Assembly: GCF_003627795.1 (NCBI RefSeq)
Contig: NZ_CP032684.1
Span: 3,387,001 to 3,451,000, forward strand
Reading direction: 5' to 3'
From: Rhizobium sp. CCGE531
GTDB taxonomy: Bacteria > Pseudomonadota > Alphaproteobacteria > Rhizobiales > Rhizobiaceae
Length of the DNA stretch: 64,000 nt
Program-made: the position numbers and the translations under genes
The notes under the pieces: model-generated
Told to the model about the DNA's origin: nothing
Database searches by the model: none
Seen by the model: the letters and a program-made list of their open reading frames with translations, nothing else
Part shown: piece after piece, positions 37,396 through 57,316 of the stretch
Position numbering within the stretch: position 1 is the stretch's first letter
How the letters are laid out: every line of letters begins with the position of its first letter

Positions 37396-37815
37396 CTACA
37401 AGGCCGCCGCCGTGCATGAGCCTTTGCAGCCGTGATCAGCTTCGCCAGGAATGACGGCGACCGCCTCGATCTCGACTTGCGCGCCCATCGGCAGCGCCGA
37501 CACCTGATAGGTCGCGCGTGCCGGACAGGGCTTCGGAAACGCCGTGGCGTAAATTTCGTTCAACTGCTTGAACTTCGAAAGATCGGTCACGAGCACGGTT
37601 GTCTTCAGGACATCGGACATCTTTGCCCCCGCCGCCGTCACGATCGCTTTTATATTTGCGAGCACCTGGCGCATCTGCTCCTCAGCATCGCCAGCCATCG
37701 TTCCCGTCACCGGATCGAGTGGCAGCTGTCCAGATACGAAAAGCAGATTGCCGTGACGTCTTGCCTGGCTATACGGACCGACTGCCGCAGGTGCGTTGGG
37801 GGTGGAGATTTCCAT
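37396..37815 (-). CDS. RidA/YjgF-family enamine/imine deaminase
   Basis: The 139-residue protein hydrolyses reactive enamine and imine intermediates set free by PLP enzymes, matching its place between two PLP genes. Start ATG 37815 follows CGAGGACAC. Family residues: GPYSQARRHGNLLFVSGQLPLDP, NIKAIVTAAGAKMSDVLKTTVLV, and the catalytic arginine in CPARATYQVSALPMGAQVEIEAVAV. Confidence 0.93.
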   Translation of the reverse strand: MEISTPNAPAAVGPYSQARRHGNLLFVSGQLPLDPVTGTMAGDAEEQMRQVLANIKAIVTAAGAKMSDVLKTTVLVTDLSKFKQLNEIYATAFPKPCPARATYQVSALPMGAQVEIEAVAVIPGEADHGCKGSCTAAAL

Positions 37816-37948: not shown

Positions 37949-39169
37949 TCATCCTTCCCGGGTGGACAATGCTTGCGCCATACGCTCGAGGCCTTGAGCT
38001 AGAATAGAGTTTGGCGTGCCGATGTTCAGACGGATATGCCCTTCACCGCCCGGTCCGTAGTCTTCACCGTAGTTGAGGACGAGGCCATGCCTCGTTTCGA
38101 ACTGGTCGAGCATTTCCTGGTGCGACATGCCGTAATCCGAGAGGTCAAGCCACATGAAGTAGGTGGACTCTGTCGGGCGTATGCGAATGCGCGGCAGCCT
38201 TTCCTTGAAGAAGGCCTCGGCAAAGGCATAGTTGCCGGCAACATATTTCATGAGATCGGCAAGCCACCCATCACAATCCCGATAAGCCACCTCGGTCGCG
38301 GCGTGGCCGAACAGAGAACCGCCGTAGCCCGAGGTATCGCGCTTCAACCCCTCAAGATACTCGTGCATGAGCCTGGGATTTGCCGCAATGACCTGGGAGT
38401 GCTTCAGCCCGGTCAGGTTGAACATCTTGCTGGCCGAAAGCAGGCTCACCGAATTCATTAGCGCATCGGAAGACACGCTGCCGAAGGGCGTGAAATGAAA
38501 GCCTTCATGCAGCAGGCCGCAATAGACCTCGTCGGAAACGACGACGATGTTGTGTTGCTGGCAAAACTCCGCAAGCTGCGCCAACTCGTCACGCGACCAG
38601 ACACGCCCGACGGGATTATGAGGATTGCAAAGCAGGAGCAGCTTTGTGCGACTGCTGACGCAGCGGGCAAGCTGATCGAAGTCGAACTCATAGCGGCCGT
38701 TGCGAAGGATCAGCGGATTTGCAACGGGCACGCGTCCAGCGGCGGCCACGATATTCCTGAATTGGAAGTGGACCGGGGGCTGGTAGATGATTTCGTCTCC
38801 CTCGACGCTCAGGCGATCGATCAACGGTCGCATGGAGGGATAGATGCCAACATTGTGGGCGATCCACTCGCGCTTGATCTCCCACCCGAAATGCCTCTTG
38901 TAAAAGCCGATCAGGGCTTCGTAGTAGCTGTTCGGCTTGTAGGGATAGCCGAAGTGGCCGAGGCGAGCAGTGCGCTCGAGAGCCTCGGCAATCGGCTTGG
39001 GAGAGCGGAAGTCCATGTCCGCGGTACCGAAACCGAGCAGGGACTTGTTGCCGGTCCGGTCAATTTCCATTTCCCACTTGACCGAGCTCAACTGCGAGCG
39101 GTCGAGGATTTCGTCAAAGTCAGTGGTTTGCGCGGCGGCATCAGCCGGCGCCCGGTGCAAATCGTGCAT
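37949..39169 (-). CDS. PatB/MalY-type C-S lyase (cystathionine beta-lyase-like aminotransferase fold)
   Basis: The 406-residue fold-I PLP enzyme has the active-site lysine in SASKMFNLTGLKHSQ (about 240), the CNPHNPVGRVW and SDEVYCGLL cofactor motifs, and the C-terminal arginine in EGHIRLNIGTP. These mark the PatB/MalY branch that splits sulfur-containing amino acids such as cystathionine, cystine or S-conjugates. It is co-transcribed with the importer genes and the desulfhydrase. Confidence 0.88.
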   Translation of the reverse strand: MHDLHRAPADAAAQTTDFDEILDRSQLSSVKWEMEIDRTGNKSLLGFGTADMDFRSPKPIAEALERTARLGHFGYPYKPNSYYEALIGFYKRHFGWEIKREWIAHNVGIYPSMRPLIDRLSVEGDEIIYQPPVHFQFRNIVAAAGRVPVANPLILRNGRYEFDFDQLARCVSSRTKLLLLCNPHNPVGRVWSRDELAQLAEFCQQHNIVVVSDEVYCGLLHEGFHFTPFGSVSSDALMNSVSLLSASKMFNLTGLKHSQVIAANPRLMHEYLEGLKRDTSGYGGSLFGHAATEVAYRDCDGWLADLMKYVAGNYAFAEAFFKERLPRIRIRPTESTYFMWLDLSDYGMSHQEMLDQFETRHGLVLNYGEDYGPGGEGHIRLNIGTPNSILAQGLERMAQALSTREG

Positions 39170-39207: not shown

Positions 39208-40005
39208 CTAGAGGACTTTGGCCAGGAACTCACGTGTTCGCGGCGACTGGGGATTGGCGATCATCTCGCGCGGATCGCCCTGTTCCATGACGGTTCCCCC
39301 ATCCATGAAGATCAACTGGTCGGCGACTTCGCGGGCAAAACCGATTTCGTGCGTCACCACGACCATCGTCATCCCGTCGCGCGCGAGATCCTTCATGACA
39401 GACAGGACTTCGCCGACAAGTTCGGGATCGAGCGCCGAGGTTGGTTCATCGAACAGCAAGACCTTCGGGCGCATGGCAAGTGCGCGCGCAATTGCAACTC
39501 GCTGCTGCTGGCCGCCAGACAGCTGTCTTGGGAAGGCGGTGGCCTTTTCCGCAAGCCCTACGCGGCTTAGCAACTCCATAGCGTGCAACCGCGCCTCGGC
39601 ACGAGGTTCGCTACGCACTTTGATCGGGGCTTCGATCAGGTTCTCCAGCACGGTCATGTGGGGGAACAGATTGAAGTGCTGGAAGACCATGCCGATTTCT
39701 GCGCGTCGAGCACAAATTTGCGACGCTCTCAGTTCATGGAGTTTGTCGTCTTTCAGGCGATATCCGACGAAATCCCCGTCGACGAGCAGCAGTCCGCTGT
39801 TGATCTCCTCGAGATGGTTGATGCATCTGAGAAATGTGCTTTTGCCGGAGCCGGACGGCCCGATAATGCAAGCGACCGAACCGTTCGGCACAGAAATATT
39901 CACGCCCTTCAGAACTTCGAGGCTGCCGTAGGACTTCCTGACGTCTGACGCGTGGATCATCACGGAGGGCGAGATAGCGAACCGTTCAAAGTGATTGGCT
40001 TTCAT
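39208..40005 (-). CDS. Polar amino-acid ABC importer ATPase
   Basis: The 265-residue ATPase has Walker [10 protein letters not shown] (about 48-56), [16 protein letters not shown], signature LSGGQQQRV and Walker [18 protein letters not shown] 40005 after GGAGAGG is chosen; it overlaps the permease stop as ATGA. It resembles GlnQ/TcyN-type subunits. Confidence 0.95.
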
Positions 40006-40946
40006 TGTGCACCTCTCCATTTTTCACGCATCATGAGGATCGAACCCAGTCGCGAGAAGCCGCCCGGAGCGGGCTTTGGTCCGGCTTCGTCCCTGGAATA
40101 ATGACGTTCGAGATAGCCCTGACCGATGGTCATGATCGAGACGACGACCAGGTACCAGAAGGTTGCGACGAGCAGGAGCGGGATGGTTTCGAACGTCCGA
40201 GCATAAATCGCCTGGGCCGAGTACAACAGGTCGCCGACGGCAATGATACTGACGAGCGAGGTCGTCTTGAGCAGGTTGATGGTCTCGTTACCGGTCGGAG
40301 GAATGATGACGCGCATTGCCTGTGGAATGACGATCCGGCGCAGCAGCAGAGAGGGCTTCATTCCCAGACACAGCGCAGCTTCCGTCTGGCCGCGATTGAC
40401 CGATTTCAAGCCGTTTCGAATGATCTCCGCCATATACCCCGCTTCATGAAGAGACAGGGCAACGACAGCCGCCACCAACGGCGTCATGATGGTATTGGTC
40501 GGAATCGAAAAGACGGTCCCGAGCCCCGGCAACCAGAGCGAAATGTCTTTGAAGATAAGGGACAGATTATACCACAGGATAAGCTGGACGAGCGCCGGCG
40601 TACCGCGGAACCACCAGATGAAGGCCGCGGCCGGGACCGACAGCATTTTGCTTGGAGAGAGCATCATCAAGGCAACGATCATGCCGATGACACTGGCAAA
40701 AAACATGATGGCCAGGGTCAGTCCGACCGTCACCCAAAGACCCTGCACGATGATCGGGTTGAGGATGTAGGAGGCGACCACGGGCCACTGAAGATTGGGA
40801 TTGCTGACGACTGCCTGCAGCAGCAAGAGCAAAAGAATCGCGACGATCGTAGCGGCAGCCCAACGCCATGGGTGACGGAGAGGCACCACGGTAAACCGGG
40901 TGCGCGCGGCTGATACGCTGTCGTCTTTGAGGGGGAGAACGTTCAA
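40002..40946 (-). CDS. Polar amino-acid ABC importer permease
   Basis: The subunit is a HisM/TcyL-type permease with five helices and the EAA motif ([40 protein letters not shown]). The longest frame begins at 41051, touching the binding-protein stop, but that stretch contains a stable hairpin. The TTG at 40946 lies 8 bases after GAAGGAG and gives 314 residues of normal length, so that start is used. A long hydrophobic helix (about 30-55 of this frame) precedes the usual TM domain. Confidence 0.85.
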
Positions 40947-43243: not shown

Positions 43244-46200
43244 TTACGAACTGTAGACGATCAGCAGGTCCTTGGCGTCGATCTGATCGCCGGTGCGGAC
43301 CAGGACTTCGGCGATCGTGCCGTCCTTTTCCGCGTGCAGCGCCGTTTCCATCTTCATGGCTTCGATCGAGAGCAGCACGTCACCGGACTTGACCGTCTGG
43401 CCGGCGGACACCGCGACCGTGGAGATGACGCCCGGCATCGGCGCACCGAGATGGGCGGCATTGCCACTGTCGGCCTTGCGGCGGATCGCGCTGGAGGCAG
43501 CCCGGTTGCGATCGGGAACCTTGATCAGGCGCGGCTGGCCGTTGAGTTCGAAGAACACCTTGACCATGGCCTGTTCGTCCGGCTCGCTCGTCGCCTGATG
43601 CAGGATGACGAGGGAGACGCCCTTTTCGAGCGCCGGCGACAGCTCTTCCCCGGCCGAGAGACCGTAGAAATAGGCGGGCGTCGGCAGGACCGAAACGGGG
43701 CCATAAGTATCCGCGGCAAGCGCATATTCGATGAACACCTTCGGATACATCAGGTAGGAAGCGAACTCGTTGTCGGAGACCTCGCGGCCGAGCTTTTCCT
43801 CGACGGCCTTGCGTTCGGCATCGAGATCGGCCGGCGCCAACAGCGATCCGGGAACCGCGGCATACGGCTTCTCGCCCTTCAGCGCCTTCTTCTGCAGGGC
43901 CTTCGGCCAACCACCTGGCGGCTGGCCGAGATCGCCCTTCAGCATCGACACGACCGAATCCGGGAAGGAGACGTCCTTGGCCGGGTTCTCGACATCGGCC
44001 ACCGTCAGATCCTGGGAGACCATCATCAGCGCCATGTCGCCCACCACCTTGGAGGACGGCGTCACCTTGACGATGTCGCCGAACATCTGGTTGGCGTCGG
44101 CATAGGCCTGCGCCACCTGATGCCAGCGGGTCTCGAGACCCAGCGAGCGGGCCTGTTCCTTGAGGTTGGTGAACTGGCCGCCCGGCATTTCGTGCAGATA
44201 GACTTCCGAGGCCGGGCCCTTGAGGTCGCTTTCGAAGGCGGCATACTGGTTGCGCACCGCTTCCCAATAGAAGGAGATGCGGCGGATCCATGCGGGATCG
44301 AGGCCCGGATCACGCTCGGAGCCGCGCAGCGCCTCGACGATCGAGCCGAGACAGGGCTGCGAGGTGTTGCCGGAGAAGGCGTCCATTGCTGCATCGACGA
44401 CGTCGACGCCGGCATCGACGGCCGCCAGAACCGTTGCAGCCGCAATGCCCGACGTGTCGTGGGTGTGGAAATGGATCGGCAGGTCGGTCGCCTCGCGCAG
44501 CGCCTTGAACAGCACGGTCGCCGCCGCTGGCTTCAACAGGCCGGCCATGTCCTTCAGCGCGATCATGTGCGCGCCGGCTTTCTCCAGCTCGGCGGCCAGC
44601 GCAGCATAGTATTTCAGGTCGTATTTCGGCCGGGCGGAGTTGAGGATGTCGCCGGTGTAGCAGATCGCCGCTTCGCAGATCCTGTTTTCTTCCGCAACCG
44701 CGTCCATCGACACGCGCATGTTTTCGACCCAGTTGAGGCAATCGAAGACGCGGAAGACGTCGATGCCGCCCCTGGCCGCCTGGCGGACGAAGTATTTGAC
44801 GACATTGTCCGGGTAGTTCTTGTAGCCGACGCCGTTGGCGCCGCGCAGCAGCATCTGCAGGAGAAGGTTCGGCGCATCCTCGCGGATACGCGCGAGGCGC
44901 TCCCACGGATCTTCCGTCAGGAAGCGCATGGAAACGTCGAAAGTCGCGCCACCCCAGCATTCCAGCGAGAACAGGTTCGGCAGCGCCTTGGCATAGGTGC
45001 CGGCGACGCGGGAAATGTCATAGGTGCGAACGCGGGTCGCCAGCAACGACTGGTGACCGTCGCGCATGGTCGTGTCCGTCATCAGAACGCGCTTTTCGGC
45101 GCGCACCCATTCGGCGAACTTCTTCGGGCCGAGCTCGTCGAGCTTCTGCTTGGTACCGTCTTTGATCGGCGTGTCGATATAGGGAACGATCGGCTTTGCC
45201 GCATCGGCATTAGGCTTCGGCCGGCCCTTGGCTTCCGGGTGGCCGTTGACCGTCACGTCGGCGAGATAGGTCAAGAGCTTCGTCGCGCGGTCCTGACGCT
45301 TGACCTGCTGGAACAGTTCCGGCGTCGTGTCGATGAAGCGGGTGGTGTAGGAATTGTCCTGGAATTTCGGGTGGCTGATGATCGCTTCGAGGAAGGTGAG
45401 GTTGGTCGCGACGCCGCGGATGCGGAATTCGCGCAGCGCCCGGTCCATGCGGGCGATCGCTTCGGCAGGGTTCGGTGCCCAGGCGGTGACCTTGACCAGC
45501 AGCGGATCGTAGAAGCGGGTGATGACGGCGCCCGGATAGGCCGTGCCACCATCCAGCCGAATGCCGAAACCGGAGGCGGAGCGGTAGCCGGTGATGCGGC
45601 CGTAGTCGGGAATGAAGTTCTGCTCCGGATCTTCCGTGGTGATCCGGCACTGCAGTGCGTGGCCGTGGAGACGGATGTCCTCCTGCTTCGGTACGCCCGA
45701 TTCCGGCGTGCCGATGGCAAAGCCCTCGAGGATGTGAATCTGCGCCTTGACGATATCGATGCCGGTGACGACTTCGGTGACGGTGTGCTCGACCTGGATG
45801 CGCGGATTGACCTCGATGAAGTAGAATTTGCCGGTGTCCATATCCATCAGATATTCGACGGTACCGGCACCGATATAGTTCGTCGCCTGGGCGATCCGGG
45901 TCGAATAGCCGGCCAGTTCCTGCCTTTGCGCTTCCGTCAGATAGGGGGCAGGGGCGCGTTCGACGACTTTCTGGTTGCGGCGCTGGACCGAGCAATCGCG
46001 CTCGAACAGATGCACGACGTTGCCGTGGGTATCGCCGAGCACCTGGCTTTCGACGTGGCGGGCCCGCTCGACCAATTTTTCCAGATAGACCTCGTCCTTG
46101 CCGAACGCGGCCATTGCCTCGCGCTTGGCTTCCGTCACCTCGCGGATCAGATCCTTGGGGTCGCGGATCGCGCGCATGCCGCGCCCGCCACCGCCCCAGG

Positions 46201-46702
46201 AAGCCTTGAGCATGACGGGATAACCGATTTCGTCGGCAAGCCGGCGGATTTCAGCTTCGTCTTCCGGCAACGGATCGGTGGCGGGAACGACCGGAACGCC
46301 GATCTCGATTGCCAGATTGCGGGCGGCAACCTTATTGCCGAGACGGCGCATGGTATCGGCCTTTGGGCCGATGAAGGTAATGCCGGCCTTGTTGCAGGCA
46401 TCGACGAATTCGGGGCTTTCAGATAGCAGGCCGTAGCCGGGATGGATGGCATCGGCGCCGGAAAGCTCTGCGACGCGGATCACCTCGTCGATCGACAAAT
46501 AACTCTCGATCGGACCAAGATCCCGCTCAAGGTGCGGCCCGCGGCCGACTTGGTAGCTTTCGTCCGCCTTGAAGCGATGAAGTGCAAGTTTGTCTTCCTC
46601 GGCCCAGATCGCGACCGTCTTTATCCCGAGCTCGTTGGCCGCGCGGAACACGCGAATGGCAATTTCAGAGCGATTGGCAACGAGTATCTTGGAAATGGGC
46701 AT
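43244..46702 (-). CDS. pyc: Pyruvate carboxylase
   Basis: This biotin enzyme carboxylates pyruvate to oxaloacetate (anaplerosis). The 1152-residue chain has the full domain order. The biotin carboxylase domain (about 1-460) starts KILVANRSEIAIRVFRAANELG and includes GGGGRGMRAI and EVNPRIQVEHTVTE. The carboxyltransferase domain (about 530-800) has DTTMRDGHQSLLATRVRT, and a PYC_OADA region follows. The biotinyl domain near the end has EAMKMETAL, with the biotin lysine at K1117. It matches the R. etli-type single-chain enzyme in length. It is a single gene with its own terminator, 94 bp after the neighbouring operon. Confidence 0.97.
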   Translation of the reverse strand: MPISKILVANRSEIAIRVFRAANELGIKTVAIWAEEDKLALHRFKADESYQVGRGPHLERDLGPIESYLSIDEVIRVAELSGADAIHPGYGLLSESPEFVDACNKAGITFIGPKADTMRRLGNKVAARNLAIEIGVPVVPATDPLPEDEAEIRRLADEIGYPVMLKASWGGGGRGMRAIRDPKDLIREVTEAKREAMAAFGKDEVYLEKLVERARHVESQVLGDTHGNVVHLFERDCSVQRRNQKVVERAPAPYLTEAQRQELAGYSTRIAQATNYIGAGTVEYLMDMDTGKFYFIEVNPRIQVEHTVTEVVTGIDIVKAQIHILEGFAIGTPESGVPKQEDIRLHGHALQCRITTEDPEQNFIPDYGRITGYRSASGFGIRLDGGTAYPGAVITRFYDPLLVKVTAWAPNPAEAIARMDRALREFRIRGVATNLTFLEAIISHPKFQDNSYTTRFIDTTPELFQQVKRQDRATKLLTYLADVTVNGHPEAKGRPKPNADAAKPIVPYIDTPIKDGTKQKLDELGPKKFAEWVRAEKRVLMTDTTMRDGHQSLLATRVRTYDISRVAGTYAKALPNLFSLECWGGATFDVSMRFLTEDPWERLARIREDAPNLLLQMLLRGANGVGYKNYPDNVVKYFVRQAARGGIDVFRVFDCLNWVENMRVSMDAVAEENRICEAAICYTGDILNSARPKYDLKYYAALAAELEKAGAHMIALKDMAGLLKPAAATVLFKALREATDLPIHFHTHDTSGIAAATVLAAVDAGVDVVDAAMDAFSGNTSQPCLGSIVEALRGSERDPGLDPAWIRRISFYWEAVRNQYAAFESDLKGPASEVYLHEMPGGQFTNLKEQARSLGLETRWHQVAQAYADANQMFGDIVKVTPSSKVVGDMALMMVSQDLTVADVENPAKDVSFPDSVVSMLKGDLGQPPGGWPKALQKKALKGEKPYAAVPGSLLAPADLDAERKAVEEKLGREVSDNEFASYLMYPKVFIEYALAADTYGPVSVLPTPAYFYGLSAGEELSPALEKGVSLVILHQATSEPDEQAMVKVFFELNGQPRLIKVPDRNRAASSAIRRKADSGNAAHLGAPMPGVISTVAVSAGQTVKSGDVLLSIEAMKMETALHAEKDGTIAEVLVRTGDQIDAKDLLIVYSS

Positions 46703-46731
46703 CGCAACTTTTCTTCACAAGCCAAGTGGAC

Positions 46732-46769
46732 GAGAGCAGGCCCTCGCCTGCTTGGCTGAGCCTGCTCTC
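46732..46769. other. Inverted repeat between pyc and the RidA gene
   Basis: GAGAGCAGGC and GCCTGCTCTC are perfect 10-bp arms with an 18-base loop. It is probably the 3' end structure of the meta-cleavage operon, or an operator of pyc; no T run follows. Confidence 0.5.
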
Positions 46770-46796
46770 TTCGATTATCGATGAAGGTATTCGCGC

Positions 46797-47204
46797 TTAA
46801 AGCGCTGCGATCGTCTGGACCTCTACAAGGAAGGGCTCCTTCACCAACCGGTCGACCATCAGCAACGTGTTCGGCGGATATTTCCCGTCCGGGAACATCT
46901 TGGGAAACTCACGCAGACGAAATTCCATGAACTTCGGGATGTCCTGCGAGTGGACCAGGTAGGTCGTGAACTGCACGACATTGCTCCAGGACGCCCCCGC
47001 AGATTCCAACGCGGCTTCGACGTTCTTGAAAACCTGTGCAGTCTGGGTGTCGAAGTCACCCTCGCCGATGACGTTGCCAGCGGAGTCACCGGACAGCATT
47101 CCCGCGATGAACAGGAACTCGTTCGCCTTCACGCGGGTGACATGCGTATACTGACCCATTGGGGGCCCAAGCTTTTCAGGGTTATAAATATTGATGTCGG
47201 CCAT
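46797..47204 (-). CDS. RidA-family protein, last gene of the ring-cleavage operon
   Basis: The 135-residue protein has the RidA fold (NEFLFIAGMLSGDSAGN, VEAALESAGASWSNVVQFTTYLVHSQD) but a diverged active site, ending in LVKEPFLVEVQTIAA without the RAT/QVSALP arginine segment. In aromatic operons this family includes 2-aminomuconate deaminases, so it may act on an enamine or lactone product of ring cleavage. It shares the operon with the FAH, permease, ATPase, binding-protein, hydrolase and dioxygenase genes. Confidence 0.85.
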   Translation of the reverse strand: MADINIYNPEKLGPPMGQYTHVTRVKANEFLFIAGMLSGDSAGNVIGEGDFDTQTAQVFKNVEAALESAGASWSNVVQFTTYLVHSQDIPKFMEFRLREFPKMFPDGKYPPNTLLMVDRLVKEPFLVEVQTIAAL

Positions 47205-47233
47205 TCTCTACTCCTAGCTTCGATGTGCGATGA

Positions 47234-48121
47234 TTATCCGACGGGGTTCTCGAGCGTGCCGATTCCGTCGATTTCGACGCGAACGCGATCACCCGGGTTG
47301 AGGTATTTCGGCGGGTTGAAGCCGATGCCGACACCGACAGGTGTACCCGTGGCAATGATGTCGCCCGCGACCAGCGTGATCGAGCGACCGATTGCGCGTA
47401 TCAGCGTCGGAATGTCGAAGATCAGGTCGCCAATTCGCGCGTTTTGACGCTGCTCATCATTCACATGGCAGCGAATGCCCTTGGACGAAATGTCGCCCAT
47501 TGCTTCCCGCGTGACGATCGCAGGCCCCAAAGGCGCAAACGTGTCGATACCTTTGCCGAGCAGCCACTGCTTGTGGCGCTTCTGCAGTTCACGCGAGGTC
47601 ACGTCGTTGATGATCGTGTAGCCGAAGACGAAATCCATCGGATCATCGTTTTCGGTGACGCGACCGGAACGACCGATGATGACAGCAAGCTCGGCTTCGT
47701 AATCCACCGACTGATAGGGATCATTTGCCCACTCGATCGTTGCGCCGGGGCCGATCACCGATGACGGTGGCTTGCTGAAGATGATCGGATATTCCGGAAT
47801 TTCGGAGCCGCCGATCGACCCGGCGTCGAAACCACTGCGACCGAACTCTGCAGCATGTTCATGATAGTTCTTGCCCACGCAGAAGATGTTCCGGCGCGGG
47901 GTCGGGATTGGCGCCAGAAGCTCCACCTCGGAGAGCTGCAATGCGCTGGCTCTCTCTTCGGCAAGCTTCTCGATCTGGGCAGTGCGCTGATCGTAGTTCT
48001 CGATCAGATCCTGCATGTCTGCTGCGAGGCCCGCTGCGGTAAGGTCGACCAGGCGAGAACCGTCGTCGACCAGAACGCCGACGGCGCTACTGCCCCGATT
48101 TTGGAATGTAACAAACTTCAT
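47234..48121 (-). CDS. Fumarylacetoacetate hydrolase (FAH)-family enzyme
   Basis: The 295-residue metal-dependent enzyme has the FAH core: IFCVGKNYHEHAAEFG, EIPEYPIIFSKPPSSVIGPG, the metal triad segment YEAELAVIIG with DFVFGYTIINDVTSRELQKRHKQW, and VAGDIIATGTPVGVGIG at the end. The family hydrolyses or hydrates acyl-pyruvate-type products of aromatic breakdown (MhpD, HpcE-like). Start ATG 48121 follows AGGAG. It stands in the ring-cleavage operon behind the permease gene. Confidence 0.92.
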   Translation of the reverse strand: MKFVTFQNRGSSAVGVLVDDGSRLVDLTAAGLAADMQDLIENYDQRTAQIEKLAEERASALQLSEVELLAPIPTPRRNIFCVGKNYHEHAAEFGRSGFDAGSIGGSEIPEYPIIFSKPPSSVIGPGATIEWANDPYQSVDYEAELAVIIGRSGRVTENDDPMDFVFGYTIINDVTSRELQKRHKQWLLGKGIDTFAPLGPAIVTREAMGDISSKGIRCHVNDEQRQNARIGDLIFDIPTLIRAIGRSITLVAGDIIATGTPVGVGIGFNPPKYLNPGDRVRVEIDGIGTLENPVG

Positions 48122-48143
48122 CAATTTACTCCTGTCTAAGGGG

Positions 48144-48167
48144 ATGGGTGGGCACTGCACCACCCAT
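48144..48167 (-). other. Intercistronic hairpin between permease and FAH genes
   Basis: ATGGGTGG and CCACCCAT pair around an 8-base loop in the 68-bp gap. A role in mRNA stability or processing is likely. Confidence 0.55.
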
Positions 48168-48189
48168 GTTGGATGCGAGATCGGGGACT

Positions 48190-49179
48190 TTATCGGCGAG
48201 CCGAGCGTTGCCGGAGCCGGTCGAGGCAGACTGCCAGCAAAATGACGAGGCCGACTGCCAGAGTTTGGAAATAGGCGGACACGCCAATCATGTTGAGGAC
48301 ATTGGAAAGCATCCCGAGCGTGACGACGCCGAACACCACATGGATCATTCCACCGCTGCCGCCCTTGAGAGCCACCCCACCAAGAACGACGGAGGCAAGG
48401 GCCTGCAAAGCGAGATTGGGTGCTGCAATCGGTTGGGCAGCGCTTGTCCAGGCGGTCACGACGACCGCACCGATCCCGGCGCAGGTGCCGCTCAAAACAT
48501 AGACGAGTACCGTATAGAAGCGGACATCAATACCGGAATGCAAAGCCGCAGAGTAGTTGGAACCCATCGCGTAAACGTACCGTCCAAAGACGGTAAAGCG
48601 CAGCAGGACCCAACAGCACGCCAAGACCGCCAGGCCAATCAAAACCATCACCGGAATTCCGGCAAGTGAGGTGAAGCCGACGAGATCGGTATATTCGCCG
48701 GGAACGTCGTAGATCGGCACGCCATTCGCCAGAATGAGAGCGAACGCCTGTGTGATGGAAAGGGCGGATAGCGTGACGATGAGCGGGCTAGCCCCCGTCG
48801 CGGCGACGACGAAGCCCGAGAAAAGCCCGCAAAAAGCGCCAACAACAACCATGACGCAAACGCCGCCGCCAATACCGAGCTGCGGCATCACGAGAACGCC
48901 GGCGACCCCGGCCACAGACAAGACGGACGATTGGGAAAGATCCAGCCCGCCGGACATGATGACAATGCCTTGGGCGGCCGCGAAAATCAGCAGTGGCGTC
49001 AATTGCCGGAGAAGATTGAGCAGGTTGTTCGTCGAGAGAAACCGCGGCTCGATCATCACTGCGACGAGCGCCAGCAATAGGATAAGCGCCGGTAACATCA
49101 AGTCGGCATAGCCGACATGTCCGAACAGATGCCGCACCTTCGGAGGACTGGCCTGGTTGATACTGCTTTGCGAACTCAT
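48190..49179 (-). CDS. ABC importer permease, RbsC type
   Basis: The 329-residue permease has about ten hydrophobic segments and the RbsC/BPD family signature (SGGLDLSQSSVLSVAGVAGVLVM at the second helix, GNYSAA-type GSNYSAALHSGIDV near 240, VVLGGVALKGGSGG near 275). ATG 49179 follows GGAGGAAG and overlaps the ATPase stop. It imports with the ATPase and binding protein. Confidence 0.93.
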   Translation of the reverse strand: MSSQSSINQASPPKVRHLFGHVGYADLMLPALILLLALVAVMIEPRFLSTNNLLNLLRQLTPLLIFAAAQGIVIMSGGLDLSQSSVLSVAGVAGVLVMPQLGIGGGVCVMVVVGAFCGLFSGFVVAATGASPLIVTLSALSITQAFALILANGVPIYDVPGEYTDLVGFTSLAGIPVMVLIGLAVLACCWVLLRFTVFGRYVYAMGSNYSAALHSGIDVRFYTVLVYVLSGTCAGIGAVVVTAWTSAAQPIAAPNLALQALASVVLGGVALKGGSGGMIHVVFGVVTLGMLSNVLNMIGVSAYFQTLAVGLVILLAVCLDRLRQRSARR

Positions 49180-50702
49180 AGAACTTCCTCCCTGTCTTTT
49201 GCATGTGTCGCGCCAACCACGTCCGCCGAGATCGATGACATGTCGCCGGTGGTCGGGGCGCTGTACGTGCGCACGCACTGTCCGTCGAACATCGTGTGAA
49301 TGCGGTCGCTGAGCGCGATCGCTTCATCGAGATCGCTGGACACAAGAAGGATCCCCCATCCCTTGCCTGTGCATTTGCGCAGTAGATTGTGAACGTCCGC
49401 TTTTGCGGCGATATCGATTCCGGCCGTCGGCTCCTCGAGCACAAGCAGACGGAGGTCGGATCCGAGCAGCCGACCGATAAGGACTTTCTGCTGGTTGCCG
49501 CCGCTCAAGCTCGTAATCAGATCTTTCGCGTTTCCATACCGGACGCCGATTTCCGACAGTTCCTTGTCAGGATCTCCGCCCGTCGGAGCGAGCGTCACCC
49601 GCTGATTGCGGCTGCGAGGACGCAGATAGAGATTTTCGCTTATACTTCTCGTCGGGAGGATCCCGTTTGAGGCGCGGCCGTTTGGAAGATGCCCTATTCC
49701 GAGCTTGCGAGCCCGAACAGGCGTATTGACGGCGATCTTTTGCCCCTCAACTTCCAACGCAACCGATGCGGCATCAGATGCTTGGCCCGATACGATTGAC
49801 GCAATGCGTTCGCTACCGCAGCCGATGACGCCATAGAGCCCGACGACTTCGCCAGGAGCTATGCGAATTGCTTCGGTGCTACCGTCCAGACGCGGCACCA
49901 CAAACGAGAGCAGATCGGCGGTGGCATTATCGGCATGTTGAACGAGCTGGCGCTGGGGTCGATGCGGCGCGGGCATCCCGCCGCCGCCGAGACGCTCGAC
50001 GATCTGATCGACGGTTTGGCGCCCTGCAATGCTTTCGACGAGAGCGCCATTGCGCAGCACCGTGACGCGGTCGGCGAGCTCGGCGACTTCCGACACGTGG
50101 TGGGTAACGAAGACGATGGCTGTGCCGTTGGCCCTAAGCTCGGCCATGATGCCGTGCAGGTGTTTGCGCTCGGCCAGGCTGAGCATGGCCGAGGGTTCAT
50201 CGAGCACGAGAATCTTCGGCTTGCGCGCCAGCGCCTTGCTGATTTCGACAAGCTGCTGCTGGCCCGGCGGGAGTTGACCGACGGGCTGCCTGATATCGAT
50301 CCTGCCGAGCCCCACCGCATCCAGAACGCTCCGGCAATCCAACCGCTCTTTCGAGCGTCTGAGCACCCGAAGCGGGTTGCGGGTCGGTTCGGCGCCCAGG
50401 AAGAGATTGTCCTGGATGCTGAGATCCGGCGCCAGCGAAAGCTCCTGGAAAACCATCGCCAAGCCGGCCGCCCGTGCTTCTTCAGGGCTGAAAAACGGGA
50501 CTTCATTGCCATCGTACCAGAAGCTGCCGGTATCTGGCCGAACAAAGCCGCCACAGATCCTGCCCAACGTGGACTTGCCCGCCCCGTTTTCCCCGATGAT
50601 GCAGTGGATCTCACCCGGGAAAATATCAATGGAGACCCCCCGGAGCGCCCTTGTCGCTCCGAAGGACTTGCTGACGTCGACTAGTCGCAGGAGTGGTGTC
50701 AT
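49176..50702 (-). CDS. ABC importer ATPase with two nucleotide-binding domains, RbsA type
   Basis: The 508-residue protein has a functional first domain with Walker A GENGAGKST (about 38-46), FQELSLAPDLSIQDNLFLG and VLDEPSAML. The second domain has a degenerate P-loop (GCGSERIASI) but a normal signature LSGGNQQKV (about 395) and VLEEPTAGIDI. This is the RbsA/MglA layout. It follows the binding-protein gene by 10 bp. Confidence 0.95.
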   Translation of the reverse strand: MTPLLRLVDVSKSFGATRALRGVSIDIFPGEIHCIIGENGAGKSTLGRICGGFVRPDTGSFWYDGNEVPFFSPEEARAAGLAMVFQELSLAPDLSIQDNLFLGAEPTRNPLRVLRRSKERLDCRSVLDAVGLGRIDIRQPVGQLPPGQQQLVEISKALARKPKILVLDEPSAMLSLAERKHLHGIMAELRANGTAIVFVTHHVSEVAELADRVTVLRNGALVESIAGRQTVDQIVERLGGGGMPAPHRPQRQLVQHADNATADLLSFVVPRLDGSTEAIRIAPGEVVGLYGVIGCGSERIASIVSGQASDAASVALEVEGQKIAVNTPVRARKLGIGHLPNGRASNGILPTRSISENLYLRPRSRNQRVTLAPTGGDPDKELSEIGVRYGNAKDLITSLSGGNQQKVLIGRLLGSDLRLLVLEEPTAGIDIAAKADVHNLLRKCTGKGWGILLVSSDLDEAIALSDRIHTMFDGQCVRTYSAPTTGDMSSISADVVGATHAKDREEVL

Positions 50703-50712
50703 CAGAGCACCG

Positions 50713-51786
50713 TCACTGCTTGATGTTCAAGGACCAATCCTTCGGCGGAAGGTCGTAGACATCGTAACCGTAGGTATCGACGTTCTTCTTCGTGATCACC
50801 GCATTGTTGGTGAAGATCGTCGGGTAGGCCATGCCCTCAGTCTTGAACTCAGCGCCTTTCGAGAGCTTTTCGTGATCTCGAATGGCGAACTGCACGATGA
50901 GGCGCCCCATCAGGATGCCGGGCTCAGAGGTGAGCGCCAGCAGACGGTCATTCTTGATCAAGGGGAGAGCTTCCCGGACAATGGTGGCGGAAACCACCTG
51001 GGCCTGGATGCCGCTTTGGCGCGCTGCCTGGGCAGCACCAAGTCCAAGCGGGATTACGGGCGTGAAAATGAACTTGGTGTCCGGATTTTTCTGAAGCATA
51101 TCCGATGCCTGGGTGAGGCCCTGCTCAAGCTCAAGCCCGCCGGTAACGGCACCCTTGACCAAGGTTACGTTCGGGCAGGCTTTGAGAGCTTGCTCGAAAC
51201 CATCGAGCCGCAAGCGCGCCCATTCAGCGCCTGCCGGTCCCGGTAGCGCGATGACGCCGGACTTGTCCGATCCTGCGGCTTCGCAGATCTCCTTGGCCAG
51301 GCCAACGCCGATCGCGCCGTCATCCTGCGTGACACCGAAGTCGACGTTCTTGCTGTCGACCGGGATGCCAGCCGCGATGACGCCGATGCCCGCATCCTTC
51401 AGCCGCTTGAGCTGGGGGTCGTAACCCTTGTAAGCAGCAGCGCCGAGAACGACATAGTCGACGCCAAGGCTTTGCAGCGTTTCGATCTGCGAGAACTGCT
51501 GCGTCACGTTTCCGTAGGCGCCGGCGATCGAGATCTGAGCAACCGTGACATTGCTTCGCTTTGCCTCGTCGGCGATCCCGTAGGCAATGCCCTTCCAGAA
51601 ATCGTCGTTGAGATGGACCAGCGTTACGCCGAGCTTGAGCGGCTTTTTCGCGACGACCGGCTCGACGATACCGGCCAGGCGGTCGGGCTCCTCGGCAAAG
51701 GTGGGCGACGCGAAAAGTGATCCAACGACGACAGCACAGGCGATGCGGGCAAAGCCGAGTGTGTATTTCGAAATTCCGGTAACCAT
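50713..51786 (-). CDS. ABC importer solute-binding protein, RbsB type
   Basis: The 357-residue protein has a signal peptide (about 1-31, ending SPTFAEE) and the periplasmic-binding fold of sugar and autoinducer importers (LGVTLVHLNDDFWKGIAYGIADEAKR, DYVVLGAAAYKGYDPQLKRLKDAGIGVIAAG, RLLALTSEPGILMGRLIVQ). TorT-like features at the end are seen. In this operon its ligand is more likely an aromatic or aromatic glycoside than a plain sugar, but that is an inference. Confidence 0.9.
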   Translation of the reverse strand: MVTGISKYTLGFARIACAVVVGSLFASPTFAEEPDRLAGIVEPVVAKKPLKLGVTLVHLNDDFWKGIAYGIADEAKRSNVTVAQISIAGAYGNVTQQFSQIETLQSLGVDYVVLGAAAYKGYDPQLKRLKDAGIGVIAAGIPVDSKNVDFGVTQDDGAIGVGLAKEICEAAGSDKSGVIALPGPAGAEWARLRLDGFEQALKACPNVTLVKGAVTGGLELEQGLTQASDMLQKNPDTKFIFTPVIPLGLGAAQAARQSGIQAQVVSATIVREALPLIKNDRLLALTSEPGILMGRLIVQFAIRDHEKLSKGAEFKTEGMAYPTIFTNNAVITKKNVDTYGYDVYDLPPKDWSLNIKQ

Positions 51787-51813
51787 GGTAGAACCCCTCT
51801 AAGGTGTTGTTAT

Positions 51814-52638
51814 TTATTGTGGTTGCGGGAATAGCGTGTGAGCGGCGGACAACAGCGCGTCCGTTCGTTCAAGCGCCACTGAGTGAGAGCAGTTTGCCAG
51901 CAGGACGACGTCCGCTTGCGGTATGTGGTCGGCAAGTTTGAGAGTGGTGGCTGGCGGGAACGGTTCGTCCACTCTCCCGTGCAGCATTGTCACTGGACAT
52001 TTGATGCGGGCCAGCACCGATGGGTCGATGATGGCTTGATCGGCATAGCGCTGCCGGTCCCCGGCAAACATGCGCGAGAAGTAGTCCTTGTAAGTGGGGT
52101 CCTCATGGAGGACCTTCACCCGCGCGTCGAGATAGGCGTCGTCGATAAGCGATTTGTCGTTGATCAGGAACCCGATCGCTTTCTTGAGATCCTCCCGGGT
52201 TTCCGGAAACGTCCAGCAAGCGACGGTCCCCTCGTTGACCGTGAATTTCGCACCCATGGCCCCGGTGGTCAGGACTTGACCGACGCGGCTTTCAGAAGCG
52301 GCGACCTGCAGGGCGAGCGACGCTGAAATGGAATGGGCGATGATCCCGACCTTTTCACCGGGGATTTTTGCCAGCATCGCCTTGCATTGCCGAATCCAGA
52401 GATCGAGATCGAAGAATGGCTCCGATGTCTTGCGGTCCGACTTGCCGAAACCGATCAGATCCATTGCATGGACATGATATCGCTCGGACAGGGGGCCGAG
52501 GACCCGGCTCCAGTTCCCCAATGTCGATGCGCCAGGCCCGGACCCGTGGATCATCAGCAGGGGATATCCCTTGCCGCCTTCGATATAGGCGACCCGATGG
52601 CCGTCAATCGAGAACTCTCGGTCTTCAAAATGAGGCAT
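51814..52638 (-). CDS. Alpha/beta hydrolase, meta-cleavage product hydrolase type
   Basis: The 274-residue hydrolase (ATG 52638 after TGGAGA) has the MhpC/BphD layout: MIHGSGPGASTLGNW (oxyanion region), nucleophile serine in IIAHSISASLAL (about 103), aspartate in LHGRVDEPFPP (about 220) and histidine in NCSHSVALER (about 250). The family breaks C-C bonds of ring-cleavage products. It follows the dioxygenase gene by 110 bp, in which a large stem-loop lies. Confidence 0.88.
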   Translation of the reverse strand: MPHFEDREFSIDGHRVAYIEGGKGYPLLMIHGSGPGASTLGNWSRVLGPLSERYHVHAMDLIGFGKSDRKTSEPFFDLDLWIRQCKAMLAKIPGEKVGIIAHSISASLALQVAASESRVGQVLTTGAMGAKFTVNEGTVACWTFPETREDLKKAIGFLINDKSLIDDAYLDARVKVLHEDPTYKDYFSRMFAGDRQRYADQAIIDPSVLARIKCPVTMLHGRVDEPFPPATTLKLADHIPQADVVLLANCSHSVALERTDALLSAAHTLFPQPQ

Positions 52639-52666
52639 GCCAATCTCCAGAAACGCCAGCTGAGGG

Positions 52667-52731
52667 GTTGCCGAACGGTATGCGAAAGCCCGCACCGCAC
52701 ATGCCTGTGCGGGCTATCGGCGTTCGGCAAC
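52667..52731 (-). other. Large nested stem-loop between dioxygenase and hydrolase genes
   Basis: Outer arms GTTGCCGAACG/CGTTCGGCAAC (52667-52677, 52721-52731) are perfect, and inner arms AGCCCGCAC/GTGCGGGCT (52687-52695, 52707-52715) are also perfect. The element occupies most of the 110-bp gap and is likely an mRNA stability or processing element. Confidence 0.8.
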
Positions 52732-52748
52732 TTGGTGGTTGACTGCGG

Positions 52749-53750
52749 CTATGCTGCTGCGTCGTAGGCGATGTAGCCCATGCCGCAGATCCACTCGACA
52801 ACCGGCTCATAGCCGATGACGTCGGCCTTCGACCCGCCCATGGCGCCCATCACGGCCATCCAGTTGAGGATCTCGTGACCACCGTGCCCACCACCCTCTT
52901 CCACGCTTTCGAAGGTGCAGTTGCGAAGATACTCGGTGTCGCCTCTTCCGAAGGCTTCGATGATTTCGCGGTCCCAGGCCGCGTTGACCAGCGGATGCTG
53001 ATGGCGCAGCGGCCACTGCATCTTGTCGGCCATCTCGATCTCGTAGGCAGCCAGGTCGGAATAGAGCGTCGGATCTTCCTCCGCGACATGCTTTCCTTCA
53101 CTTTGATACCGCTTCATGCGCTGAAGGAACTGGTCGTCTTCCGGCGCACCTTCGGTCCAGACGGGAGGCCAATGCGACAGGCCGCCGGTCGCCAGGAACG
53201 CAACCCGAAGGCCGGCCGGCAATTCGCGTTCAACGATGTCGCGCACGGCTGCACCCATGTCATATGCACGGGCCATGGTCGGTAGCGGCGGCGAGAACAC
53301 GTTCGTGTAGATCGGAATGACAGGAATGTCGTATTGCGGCCGGATCAGCTTCCACGGCACGAGAAGATTGTTGCCGTATTCGATCTCGCCCATGCGCGCC
53401 GCATCGAAATTGCGCTTGATCAGCCCGCGGAGCAATGCTTCCGCATGTTCGACATTGCTCTCGATCACGACTTTCTCATCGAACTTGAGAGCTTCCATCA
53501 TATAGTCGGCCGGGCCGCTATGGGATGCCGAGATGCCGACGGCAAAGGCCGGCATCATGTTGCGGAAATGGTTCTCGAAATGGTCGTCCAGGAAGGCGAT
53601 GATCAAGTCGGGGCGCGCGGCCTCAAGACGCCGAGCGCATTCCTGATGGGCTTCGTGGATGCTTTTCTTAACCGCTTCGGACGGCGCGTCTGCCCATCCA
53701 AGGACGCCGGGGGCATGGGACATGCTCAGGGCGCAAACAACTTCAGCCAT
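52749..53750 (-). CDS. LigB-family extradiol ring-cleavage dioxygenase
   Basis: This non-heme iron enzyme opens the ring of a catechol or hydroxylated aromatic acid. The 333-residue protein (ATG 53750 after AGGAGGAAG) has the class III extradiol features: iron ligands H12 (SMSHAPG) and H61 (DDHFENHF), the acid/base histidine H193 in TGGLSHWP and a candidate third ligand E262 in WDREIIEAF. The C-terminal GGHEILNWMAVMGAMGG is typical of the LigB/gallate dioxygenase branch. It heads the importer operon and is the key enzyme of the pathway. Substrate unknown. Confidence 0.92.
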   Translation of the reverse strand: MAEVVCALSMSHAPGVLGWADAPSEAVKKSIHEAHQECARRLEAARPDLIIAFLDDHFENHFRNMMPAFAVGISASHSGPADYMMEALKFDEKVVIESNVEHAEALLRGLIKRNFDAARMGEIEYGNNLLVPWKLIRPQYDIPVIPIYTNVFSPPLPTMARAYDMGAAVRDIVERELPAGLRVAFLATGGLSHWPPVWTEGAPEDDQFLQRMKRYQSEGKHVAEEDPTLYSDLAAYEIEMADKMQWPLRHQHPLVNAAWDREIIEAFGRGDTEYLRNCTFESVEEGGGHGGHEILNWMAVMGAMGGSKADVIGYEPVVEWICGMGYIAYDAAA

Positions 53751-53847
53751 TAACTTCCTCCTCATTGATGCGTTCGTTCAGCCAGTCAACGGCCCGATGA
53801 CGCGGTTTGTCGGCAGCGAAGGCGCCAACTTAATCTGCATGTCTTTC

Positions 53848-53875
53848 GGATACAGAATACGGGATTCAGGATACA
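53848..53875. promoter_or_regulatory. Four tandem 7-mers in the divergent promoter region
   Basis: GGATACA, GAATACG, GGATTCA and GGATACA follow each other without gaps. They lie between the dioxygenase and the GntR genes and contain overlapping ATAC/GTAT half-sites of the VanR/FCD type. This is the best candidate operator in the 321-bp gap 53751-54071. Confidence 0.55.
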
Positions 53876-54071
53876 TACGTGACAAGCGATTGCAAGTGGT
53901 TTATGATCGCAGATAACGATTTGGTTAGAGGGCAAGCTGACATGCGAAAAGCTGAGGGAGGGCCGTTGTGCGTGTCACCTTCAGGGTTCGTGGCCTGCAG
54001 ACCCGAGCGACTTATGTTTTTCAGGAGGCGCAGCCGCGCCTGCCGAAATGAACTTTGAAGGATGAATACGA

Positions 54072-54797
54072 ATGGTTTCAGAGACCGGTCCGAAGCGCCA
54101 AATGCAGCGATCCAAGCTCTCTTCCCAGCTCTACTCGATGGTGAAAAACGACATCCTACAGGGACAACTGCTTCCAGGTAGTCCCATCTCGGAAGAGGCA
54201 CTGGCCGAAACCTACGGTGTCAGCCGGTCTCCGGCTCGCGAGGCGCTGGCGGAACTGGAACGCGCCGGGCTTACCCAACGGTCGGGCATGCGGGATCGCA
54301 AGATTACGGTCCCAAGCCTCGAGATGATCCGCGAGAAATTCGAACTCTGGTGGATCGTCGATGTCGGTCGCACCTATCTCGCCTCATTGTCCGCGAGTGA
54401 GGACGACGTCGACGAGCTTGAGCGATACGCCGAACAGATGGCGACCGCAGTCGAACAGAACGATGTCAGGACCTACAAGAGCGTCTCCCACAAGTTCCAT
54501 CTCAAGATCCGGCATTCTTGCCGCAATGAAGCGGTAAACGAAGTCGGGCGCGACTGCGACGTCTACCTGGACTGGTTCGAGAACCTTTACGACCGCTATC
54601 CGGAATGTTCGATGGTCATCGTGCAAGAGCACCGCTCCATTCTCGATGCCTTCAAACGCCGCGACCTGGCAGGCTTGTCCGAAACGATCAGAAATCACAT
54701 CGAGCGGCAGCGCGACCGGATATTGGAGCATTTCCAGGCCGCACAGGAAAAGCCGAAGGCCCGGTCGAAACTGTCGGCTCGACAGCCAGTCTCCTGA
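54072..54797 (+). CDS. GntR-family regulator (FCD type), likely of the ring-cleavage operon
   Basis: The 241-residue protein has a winged helix (ISEEALAETYGVSRSPAREALAELERAGLTQR) and an FCD sensor domain with metal ligands (HKFHLKIRHSC, EHRSILDAFKRRD, IRNHIERQRDR). It diverges from the dioxygenase operon across the tandem-7-mer region. A second GntR gene follows 93 bp on. Confidence 0.9.
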   Translation: MVSETGPKRQMQRSKLSSQLYSMVKNDILQGQLLPGSPISEEALAETYGVSRSPAREALAELERAGLTQRSGMRDRKITVPSLEMIREKFELWWIVDVGRTYLASLSASEDDVDELERYAEQMATAVEQNDVRTYKSVSHKFHLKIRHSCRNEAVNEVGRDCDVYLDWFENLYDRYPECSMVIVQEHRSILDAFKRRDLAGLSETIRNHIERQRDRILEHFQAAQEKPKARSKLSARQPVS

Positions 54798-54890
54798 TCT
54801 TCACGGCTTCTGCCATAGCCGGCCAAGACAACTTGCGAGACCCATTTGCCGCTACAACGCTGACCGGCCGGAAGGCCGTAGGGAACAATC

Positions 54891-55532: not shown

Positions 55533-55608
55533 CCCTGATAGAGATTGGTGGGTTTCGGATTGCGATTTGCATCTCCCACCGCATATTCCCCGAAAAAGTG
55601 AGGATTTG

Positions 55609-55941: not shown

Positions 55942-56077
55942 CAGCGGCAGGGCAATTCCGCCCCCGTCACGGGAGGAAGGGTCGCTGCTCCCATCGCCAT
56001 GGCCGGCGGTTTCTGCGCCTCCATCACGACGAGACTAGCGGCGCGGGAGCGAAATTATCCGCCCGCGCCGTTCTGGA

Positions 56078-56428: not shown

Positions 56429-56438
56429 GGTCTCTCTC

Positions 56439-57206: not shown

Positions 57207-57224
57207 TGTCTTGCTCCTGTTTCT

Positions 57225-57242
57225 CTATCTAACGTTAGATAG
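57225..57242. promoter_or_regulatory. Palindromic operator 1
   Basis: CTATCTAACGTTAGATAG is a perfect 18-bp palindrome just upstream of the SDR gene. Confidence 0.8.
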
Positions 57243-57285
57243 ATGCGGAGCGACACATAATGCTTGCCAGAGGGAAGCGCAACCC

Positions 57286-57303: not shown

Positions 57304-57316
57304 AGAGGATATGCGC

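What the first reader, a model, noticed from the sequence alone, without database searches (positions are those of the whole stretch)
46797..53750. Candidate novel meta-cleavage operon with a sugar-type ABC importer
LigB-type dioxygenase, C-C hydrolase, FAH-family enzyme and RidA-family protein in one unit with an RbsABC importer is an unusual mix. Ring cleavage, hydrolysis and pyruvate-type product handling can be laid out, with RidA possibly acting as a 2-aminomuconate-type deaminase. Aromatic acids usually enter by MFS or TRAP systems, so the RbsB protein may bind an aromatic glycoside or similar plant compound. This is my best candidate for an undescribed system in the window.
Basis: inference. 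Interest (0 to 1): 0.7.

Follow-up and report, generated by a model that had tools for sequence, protein, structure and literature searches.

The report
Rhizobial operon that digests mimosine's ring
The seven genes are real, but they look like a copy of a published set with which root-nodule bacteria of Leucaena-type trees take up and break down the ring of the plant toxin mimosine; what remains open is how two small extra enzymes in it work.

Summary
In detail: seven co-directional genes (46797-53765, minus strand) encode RidA-like, FAH, ABC permease, ATPase, binding protein, alpha/beta hydrolase and LigB-type dioxygenase. It is not an undescribed system. It matches the pyd operon for 3-hydroxy-4-pyridone (3,4-dihydroxypyridine), the ring half of mimosine, known from Rhizobium sp. 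TAL1145. The dioxygenase carries both PydA motifs published for primers, and counterparts of midABCD and midR stand beside it. The pyc-pyd stretch recurs at 87-90% DNA identity on five rhizobial plasmids, the mid side at 84-91%. The unit probably includes a second pyruvate carboxylase gene. The published importer in this cluster takes up the pyridone, so a glycoside ligand is unlikely. Two points go beyond the passages I read. FAH and Rid lie near the dioxygenase in 11 of 12 non-rhizobial loci. The Rid lacks the arginine that known Rid deaminases need (Asn in 18 of 19, Ala in 1), while a second Rid beside midD keeps it (6 of 6). Interest lies in that Rid.

The parts
52749..53750 (-). pydA: LigB-type (class III) extradiol dioxygenase, 3,4-dihydroxypyridine 2,3-dioxygenase
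   Evidence: PF02900 113.6 bits; NF009913 429 bits, just under its cut-off 462; DDHFENH and EWICGM both present, the PydA primer motifs of PMC3637104; His12, His57, His193, Glu293 (numbering of the first row of A2) invariant in 10 rows
51814..52638 (-). alpha/beta hydrolase, most likely PydB (deformylase of the ring-cleavage product)
   Evidence: PF12697/PF00561; nearest solved relatives are meta-cleavage product hydrolases, best 131 bits. Which gene bears the name pydB could not be checked: the 2005 paper is not held, and a review calls PydB a pyruvate hydrolase (EC 3.7.1.6), which would also suit the FAH gene
50713..51786 (-). periplasmic binding protein of the 3-hydroxy-4-pyridone importer (one of pydCDE)
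   Evidence: PF13407 109.9 bits; solved relative 5ix8, labelled putative sugar-binding, 342.9 bits
49176..50702 (-). ABC ATPase of the importer (two ATPase domains, RbsA/AraG type)
   Evidence: PF00005, two stretches; best NCBIfam AraG 345 bits, under its cut-off 689
48190..49179 (-). ABC permease of the importer (RbsC type)
   Evidence: PF02653 101.8 bits; start moved to 49179
47234..48121 (-). FAH-family enzyme, predicted 3-formylpyruvate hydrolase (KpiD-like step)
   Evidence: PF01557 230 bits; near the dioxygenase in 11 of 12 non-rhizobial loci; KpiD (FAH family) proposed for this step in PMC7356986
46797..47204 (-). Rid-family protein without the RidA arginine (Asn112)
   Evidence: PF01042 74.8 bits; TIGR00004 52 bits, under cut-off 106; Asn at the Arg105 position in 18 of 19 orthologues, Ala in 1
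43244..46702 (-). pyc: second pyruvate carboxylase, probably last gene of the unit
   Evidence: 94 bp behind rid; 88-91% identical to genes annotated pyc in L002-L004; another copy in the genome at 87% identity
43184..43209 (-). terminator-like hairpin behind pyc
   Evidence: 10 pairs, 8 G-C, T-rich tail; consensus match only
54072..54797 (+). GntR/FCD regulator, divergent from pydA
   Evidence: PF00392 + PF07729; 95-99% identical in L002-L006
42146..43108 (+). midR: LysR regulator of the mimosine genes
   Evidence: LysR models, none at its cut-off; same place in plasmid islands
41051..41896 (-). midA: amino-acid-type binding protein
   Evidence: 84-89% identical in L002-L004
40002..41051 (-). 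midB: amino-acid-type ABC permease (start uncertain)
39208..40020 (-). midC: amino-acid-type ABC ATPase
37949..39169 (-). midD: PatB-type PLP lyase, presumed mimosinase
   Evidence: TIGR04350 359.3 bits, over its cut-off 340; 97% identical in CB3060
37396..37815 (-). second Rid, with the RidA arginine
   Evidence: PF01042 137.8 bits; Arg in 6 of 6 copies beside midD

Best explanation
The unit 43244-53750 is the pyd operon of a mimosine-degrading root-nodule bacterium, next to its mid genes. [quoted passage not shown] if 2-aminoacrylate is the first product, as is usual for such PLP lyases, the Rid beside midD would clear it (inferred). The RbsABC-type importer takes up free 3-hydroxy-4-pyridone. 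PydA opens the ring to 3-(N-formyl)-formiminopyruvate; the alpha/beta hydrolase removes formate; 3-formiminopyruvate loses ammonia to give 3-formylpyruvate (by itself or with the Asn-type Rid, inferred); the FAH enzyme splits this to formate and pyruvate (inferred from KpiD); the extra pyruvate carboxylase feeds pyruvate into the citric acid cycle (inferred). The divergent GntR protein is the likely regulator (inferred). Reported in the papers for TAL1145 or relatives: roles of MidABCD, PydA, PydB and PydCDE, and the intermediates. Not shown here: any activity of the proteins of this window.
For: Both PydA primer motifs are present, 810 nt from end to end against a sequenced 801 bp fragment in the paper. 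A review places midABCD, a LysR-type midR, pydA, pydB and an ABC importer pydCDE in TAL1145; each has a counterpart here. The dioxygenase is 97.0-99.4% identical on five plasmids, then 62%; a 14.1 kb query (43200-57300) is 87.2-90.4% identical on those five, and 30000-44000 84.4-90.9% over 77-93% of the query. Sources: Leucaena, Vachellia, Acaciella, Desmanthus, Phaseolus; that the first four are mimosoid legumes is recalled. Hyphomicrobium proteins at 76-79% identity agree with the PydA set named in PMC3637104. The genome has nodC, 761 bits against a cut-off of 550. PydA at E <= 1e-60 is in 1 of 100 genomes of the kin set, the own one, and in none of the other 59 of the same genus. KpiB (alpha/beta hydrolase) and KpiD (FAH) do, or are proposed for, the same steps.
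Against: The TAL1145 sequence (AY729020) was not in what I could reach and the 2005 paper is not held, so identity to it was not measured. PMC3637104 says the TAL1145 dioxygenase had not been purified, so PydA's reaction rests on genetics and on the pathway. NF009913 falls short of its cut-off. The passages read do not mention Rid, FAH or pyc genes in TAL1145. One of the five plasmid hosts came from Phaseolus, not known to me as a mimosine plant.
Confidence: 0.95

Rival explanations
1. An undescribed pathway for an aromatic or phenolic glycoside, with the RbsB-type protein binding the glycoside.
For: The importer belongs to the sugar-type families, and LigB-type enzymes act on several catechols.
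Against: No glycosidase among the genes scanned; the binding protein is far under each listed sugar-specific cut-off; mid genes adjoin; the importer reported for 3-hydroxy-4-pyridone is an ABC system of this gene set.
Confidence: 0.02
2. A general 3,4-dihydroxypyridine (4-hydroxypyridine) module that rhizobia adopted and joined to mimosine genes; in other bacteria it is fed by an FAD monooxygenase instead of MidD. (An extension of the best explanation, not its opposite.)
For: The core (dioxygenase, hydrolase, FAH, Rid) occurs away from mid genes; an FAD monooxygenase, 73-82% identical to that of L009, lies behind the dioxygenase in 6 of 7 loci of the enterobacterial type (L009 itself counted), and one 72% identical in Novosphingobium pSA1.
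Against: The monooxygenase's substrate is unknown; its best solved relative is tropone 2-monooxygenase, ahead of 6-hydroxynicotinate 3-monooxygenase. The dioxygenases, 54-67% identical, may have another substrate. L013, L015 and L016 showed no such monooxygenase. L017 has midB- and midC-like transporter genes (34% and 56%) near by, and L007 a 27% partial match to midD.
Confidence: 0.5
3. The Rid of this operon is a true deaminase for 3-formiminopyruvate.
For: Such a step exists in the pathway and Rid lies near the dioxygenase in 11 of 12 non-rhizobial loci; RutC does an analogous job in uracil breakdown.
Against: RutC and RidA need an arginine that is Asn here; PMC7356986 holds that the step may be spontaneous; L007 has the dioxygenase without a Rid found near it.
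Confidence: 0.35

Closest known systems
mid/pyd mimosine catabolic genes of Rhizobium sp. TAL1145 (PMC11524260, PMC3637104: passages seen)
   Same: PydA motifs, hydrolase, ABC importer, midABCD and a LysR gene
   Different: Rid, FAH and pyc are not mentioned in the passages seen; sequence identity to TAL1145 not measured
mid-pyc-pyd islands on plasmids of Rhizobium sp. CB3060, Sinorhizobium americanum (two strains), S. terangae, S. chiapasense
   Same: Same genes; 87-90% DNA identity on the pyc-pyd side, 84-91% on the mid side
   Different: There on plasmids of 0.14-0.59 Mb; here on contig C1, which reaches at least 3.96 Mb, while nodC is on C4
kpi cluster for 4-hydroxypyridine in Arthrobacter sp. 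IN13 (PMC7356986, passages seen)
   Same: Same intermediates; alpha/beta hydrolase and FAH-family enzyme
   Different: Its ring-opening enzyme KpiC is of the amidohydrolase family, about 20% identical to PydA
rut operon (RutC, a Rid; PMC8113886, passages seen)
   Same: A Rid in breakdown of an N-heterocycle
   Different: RutC has the catalytic arginine; the Rid here has Asn

Membership tests
pyd operon (3-hydroxy-4-pyridone catabolism) | PydA-type class III dioxygenase with DDHFENH and EWICGM | tested here: met
pyd operon (3-hydroxy-4-pyridone catabolism) | Hydrolase gene pydB beside pydA | tested here: met
   alpha/beta hydrolase 110 bp behind pydA; that this one bears the name pydB is inferred
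pyd operon (3-hydroxy-4-pyridone catabolism) | Three-part ABC importer pydCDE | tested here: met
pyd operon (3-hydroxy-4-pyridone catabolism) | Sequence identity to AY729020 of TAL1145 | not testable with these tools
   I had no access to the record; paper not held
pyd operon (3-hydroxy-4-pyridone catabolism) | Induction by mimosine or 3-hydroxy-4-pyridone and growth on them | not testable with these tools
   needs cultures
mid operon (mimosine to 3-hydroxy-4-pyridone) | midABC importer, midD PLP lyase, midR LysR regulator | tested here: met
   same order in plasmid islands
RidA-type imine deaminase (for 46797-47204) | Arginine at the RidA Arg105 position | tested here: not met
   Asn; 18 of 19 Asn, 1 Ala, 0 Arg
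RidA-type imine deaminase (for 37396-37815) | Arginine at the RidA Arg105 position | tested here: met
   Arg in 6 of 6 copies beside midD
Rid subfamilies Rid4-Rid7 (lack the arginine) | Placement in a Rid family tree | not tested
   no subfamily tree was built; PMC4433059 says the residue is Trp in Rid4 and Rid7 and variable in Rid5 and Rid6
2-aminomuconate deaminase | Active site of the solved enzyme 6izh | tested here: inconclusive
Sugar importer of RbsABC type | Binding protein reaches a curated sugar-specific cut-off | tested here: not met
   RbsB 28.3 of 337, allose 49.6 of 335; best model is TorT, 94.5 of 200

The most novel reading that the evidence does not exclude
The operon's Rid belongs to a separate Rid type in which asparagine replaces the catalytic arginine, and it has a real, substrate-specific job in pyridine-ring breakdown, acting on 3-formiminopyruvate or its neighbour. 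By the Rid papers seen here it would be the first arginine-less Rid with a known role. The same core, with an FAD monooxygenase, would be an unassigned 4-hydroxypyridine pathway of several Proteobacteria.
Probability: 0.35. Interest if true: 0.55.

Novelty: already known. Interest (0 to 1): 0.3.

Why it matters
As a finding it closes a lead: the 'novel' operon is the ring-degrading half of the mimosine pathway. What is useful is a fuller parts list (FAH, two kinds of Rid, an extra pyruvate carboxylase) that the passages I read leave out, and a clean test of what an arginine-less Rid does, since the 2015 family survey calls the functions of the arginine-less Rid4-Rid7 unknown. It also suggests that the solved 'sugar-binding' protein 5ix8 may bind a hydroxypyridone.

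Tried and rejected
Glycoside import: rejected because no glycosidase was among the genes scanned and the importer reported for this gene set takes up 3-hydroxy-4-pyridone. Gallate or protocatechuate cleavage: those models score 76.7 of 412 and 60.4 of 837. 3-carboxyethylcatechol dioxygenase, near the name that one source (JGI) gives relatives: best 139.5 of 286. 16S rRNA in the own genome, to tell chromosome from plasmid, found nothing (that search also missed 5 of 14 control genomes), so the replicon rests on contig length. No tRNA in the window, so no tRNA insertion site was seen. The Erwinia operon has no near match on plasmids. Genome samples gave few hits, and by position or contig length the three genomes found besides the own one, G131, G136 and G832, look like the records of L008, L009 and L007, so they added no new locus. 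The iron idea (siderophore-interacting protein near the core) was kept as a remark only: present in 4 of 5 rhizobial plasmid islands and 4 of 7 enterobacterial-type loci, but these are related loci, not independent events, and no background rate was measured. In one search the script misread some frames (FAH of L011, hydrolase of L004 and L006) and the output was cut; gene counts were therefore taken from the tblastn places.
Full report
What is there. Seven open genes lie on the minus strand at 46797-53765 with gaps of -4 to 110 bp. Pfam gives Ribonuc_L-PSP (Rid), FAA_hydrolase, BPD_transp_2, ABC_tran, Peripla_BP_4, alpha/beta hydrolase and LigB, all above cut-off. No NCBIfam model listed reaches its cut-off. 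A pyruvate carboxylase gene at 43244-46702 lies 94 bp behind rid, followed by a terminator-like hairpin. A GntR/FCD regulator faces pydA. Beyond pyc come a LysR gene, midA-D counterparts, a second Rid and a D-cysteine-desulfhydrase-family gene.

What it is. Among plasmid records the dioxygenase has five matches at 97.0-99.4% identity, and the next is 62%. The five come from Leucaena, Vachellia, Desmanthus, Acaciella and Phaseolus isolates. A 14.1 kb query (43200-57300) is held at 80% or more by five of 73 matching records, at 87.2-90.4% identity; 30000-44000 matches the same five at 84.4-90.9% over 77-93% of the query. Annotation of both sides was read for CB3060, CCGM7 (15, 72), S. terangae (16, 49) and S. 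chiapasense (42), and of the mid side only for CFNEI 73 (48), whose pyd side matches in one piece. The order is the same: GntR (two genes in CB3060 and CCGM7, one in S. terangae and S. chiapasense), dioxygenase, hydrolase, binding protein, ATPase, permease, FAH, RidA, pyc, LysR, amino-acid ABC genes, PatB-type lyase, Rid, D-cysteine-desulfhydrase family. A review describes midABCD with midR, pydA and pydB, and an ABC importer pydCDE for 3-hydroxy-4-pyridone in Rhizobium sp. TAL1145 (PMC11524260, passages; pydA and pydB also in PMC6514861, passages). PMC3637104 (passages) built PydA primers on DDHFENH and EWICGM; both are in this protein, 810 nt from end to end. The 2005 pyd paper is not held. 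I recall its abstract as saying that pydA and pydB are cotranscribed and that pydC, D and E have promoters of their own; I also recall a 2007 report tying pyruvate carboxylase to mimosine use in TAL1145. Neither was read here; the second was not among the 20 listed of 4,546.

How it works. PMC7356986 (passages) gives the route in another bacterium: 3,4-dihydroxypyridine is opened to 3-(N-formyl)-formiminopyruvate; an alpha/beta hydrolase leads to 3-formylpyruvate, with deamination of 3-formiminopyruvate more likely spontaneous; an FAH-family enzyme is proposed to give formate and pyruvate. The operon has a protein for each step. His12, His57, His193 and Glu293 of the dioxygenase (first row of A2) are invariant in 10 rows, nine of them 54-75% identical to the first; that these are the metal ligands and catalytic base is recalled from the family. 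The genome has a second pyc at 87% identity, so the one here is an extra copy. Breaking down mimosine yields pyruvate from both halves, which would explain it (inference).

The Rid. Tested Rid deaminases need an arginine (PMC4433059, PMC5619798, PMC8113886, passages). In 19 pyd-Rid orthologues the residue is Asn in 18, Ala in 1 and Arg in none; the Rid beside midD has Arg in 6 of 6 records. Two further Rid-like rows of that call, 30-33% identical to the second Rid (L008 14739, Ser; L015 6115, Arg), were left out of both counts. The rhizobial rows are nearly identical, so they are not independent; the non-rhizobial ones carry the weight. PMC4433059 also notes that about 10% of RidA proteins have Ser instead of Arg, so lacking it is not unique, and I did not place this Rid in a subfamily. 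So one island carries two Rids of different kind. The arginine type would fit 2-aminoacrylate from MidD (inference). The Asn type goes with ring cleavage: among 12 non-rhizobial loci (L007-L017 and L046) Rid and FAH are within the stretch fetched in 11, the hydrolase in 10 (in L011 the contig ends first), and the ABC importer in 9. L007, 75% identical in PydA, has none of them, which is evidence against a strict need. L008 has two Rids of the pyd type.

Spread. PydA at E <= 1e-60 was found in 1 of 100 genomes of the kin set, the own genome, and with a profile in 3 of 398 of the phylum sample, own included, 1 of 345 of the order sample round G136, which is G136 itself, and 3 of 385 of the class sample, own included (limit 1e-80 in the last two). 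The protein search lists 120 of 367 relatives at E <= 1e-40, the nearest 99%, then 79%. R. etli sv. mimosae was reported to lack mid and pyd genes (PMC4125696, passage). The island is thus rare and patchy. GC is 59.4% for mid-pyd against 61.15% for window 1-30000 and 64.2% for 57300-64000.

Outside rhizobia. In 6 of 7 loci of the enterobacterial type (L009-L014, L017; L010 is labelled Martelella alba), L009 itself counted, an FAD monooxygenase follows the dioxygenase; the other five are 73-82% identical to that of L009. Novosphingobium resinovorum pSA1 has one at 72% with Rid, hydrolase and FAH. L008 (Zavarzinia) has two distant ones (25-26%). I suggest a 4-hydroxypyridine pathway; the closest solved relative, tropone 2-monooxygenase, leaves other substrates open.

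Searches for prior notice. Only joined mimosine or dihydroxypyridine with RidA, L-PSP or siderophore-interacting protein: 21 papers held two or more of the terms, 12 were listed, and none of the 12 held one term of each side. In one search two listed papers hold both mimosine and siderophore (PMC10591227, PMC4907175); I did not open them. In one search, 12 of 47 papers were listed and two hold 4-hydroxypyridine (PMC7356986; PMC10005059, not opened). Most subscription papers are not in the library, so this is weak.

Verdict. Real, open and well explained: a further copy of a known catabolic cluster. I rate interest 0.3, for the Asn-type Rid and the fuller parts list.

Noticed in passing
window 32274-33008 (-): Siderophore-interacting protein in the same island (PF04954, 102 bits), with an MFS gene and AraC-type regulators; annotated in 4 of 5 plasmid islands (not seen in the CB3060 stretch), and SIP homologues also lie near the core in L009, L011, L012, L013. 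As 3-hydroxy-4-pyridones bind Fe(III) (recalled), it might free iron from the chelate.
   Followed up: partly
L009 11015-12181 and counterparts: FAD monooxygenase behind the pydA relative in 6 of 7 enterobacterial-type loci and near it in L046; candidate 4-hydroxypyridine hydroxylase.
   Followed up: partly
window 50713-51786: The solved protein 5ix8, deposited as a putative sugar-binding protein, is the nearest structure to this binding protein (342.9 bits); its ligand may be a hydroxypyridone.
   Followed up: no
window 43244-46702: Second pyruvate carboxylase, 87% identical to another copy in the genome.
   Followed up: partly
window 36395-37417: D-cysteine-desulfhydrase-family PLP enzyme beside the second Rid and midD, annotated in 5 of 5 plasmid islands; role in mimosine use unknown.
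   Followed up: no
L032 20769-22277; L006 4587-5224; L016 10001-10988: Genes that look split or shifted in relatives: the ATPase of S. chiapasense is annotated in part with a reverse hypothetical gene; the second GntR of Ensifer BR816 and the dioxygenase of Paenalcaligenes match in pieces. Described only.
   Followed up: no
window 56078-57206: Carboxymuconolactone-decarboxylase-family and short-chain dehydrogenase genes that also lie near the island in S. americanum CCGM7 and S. chiapasense.
   Followed up: no
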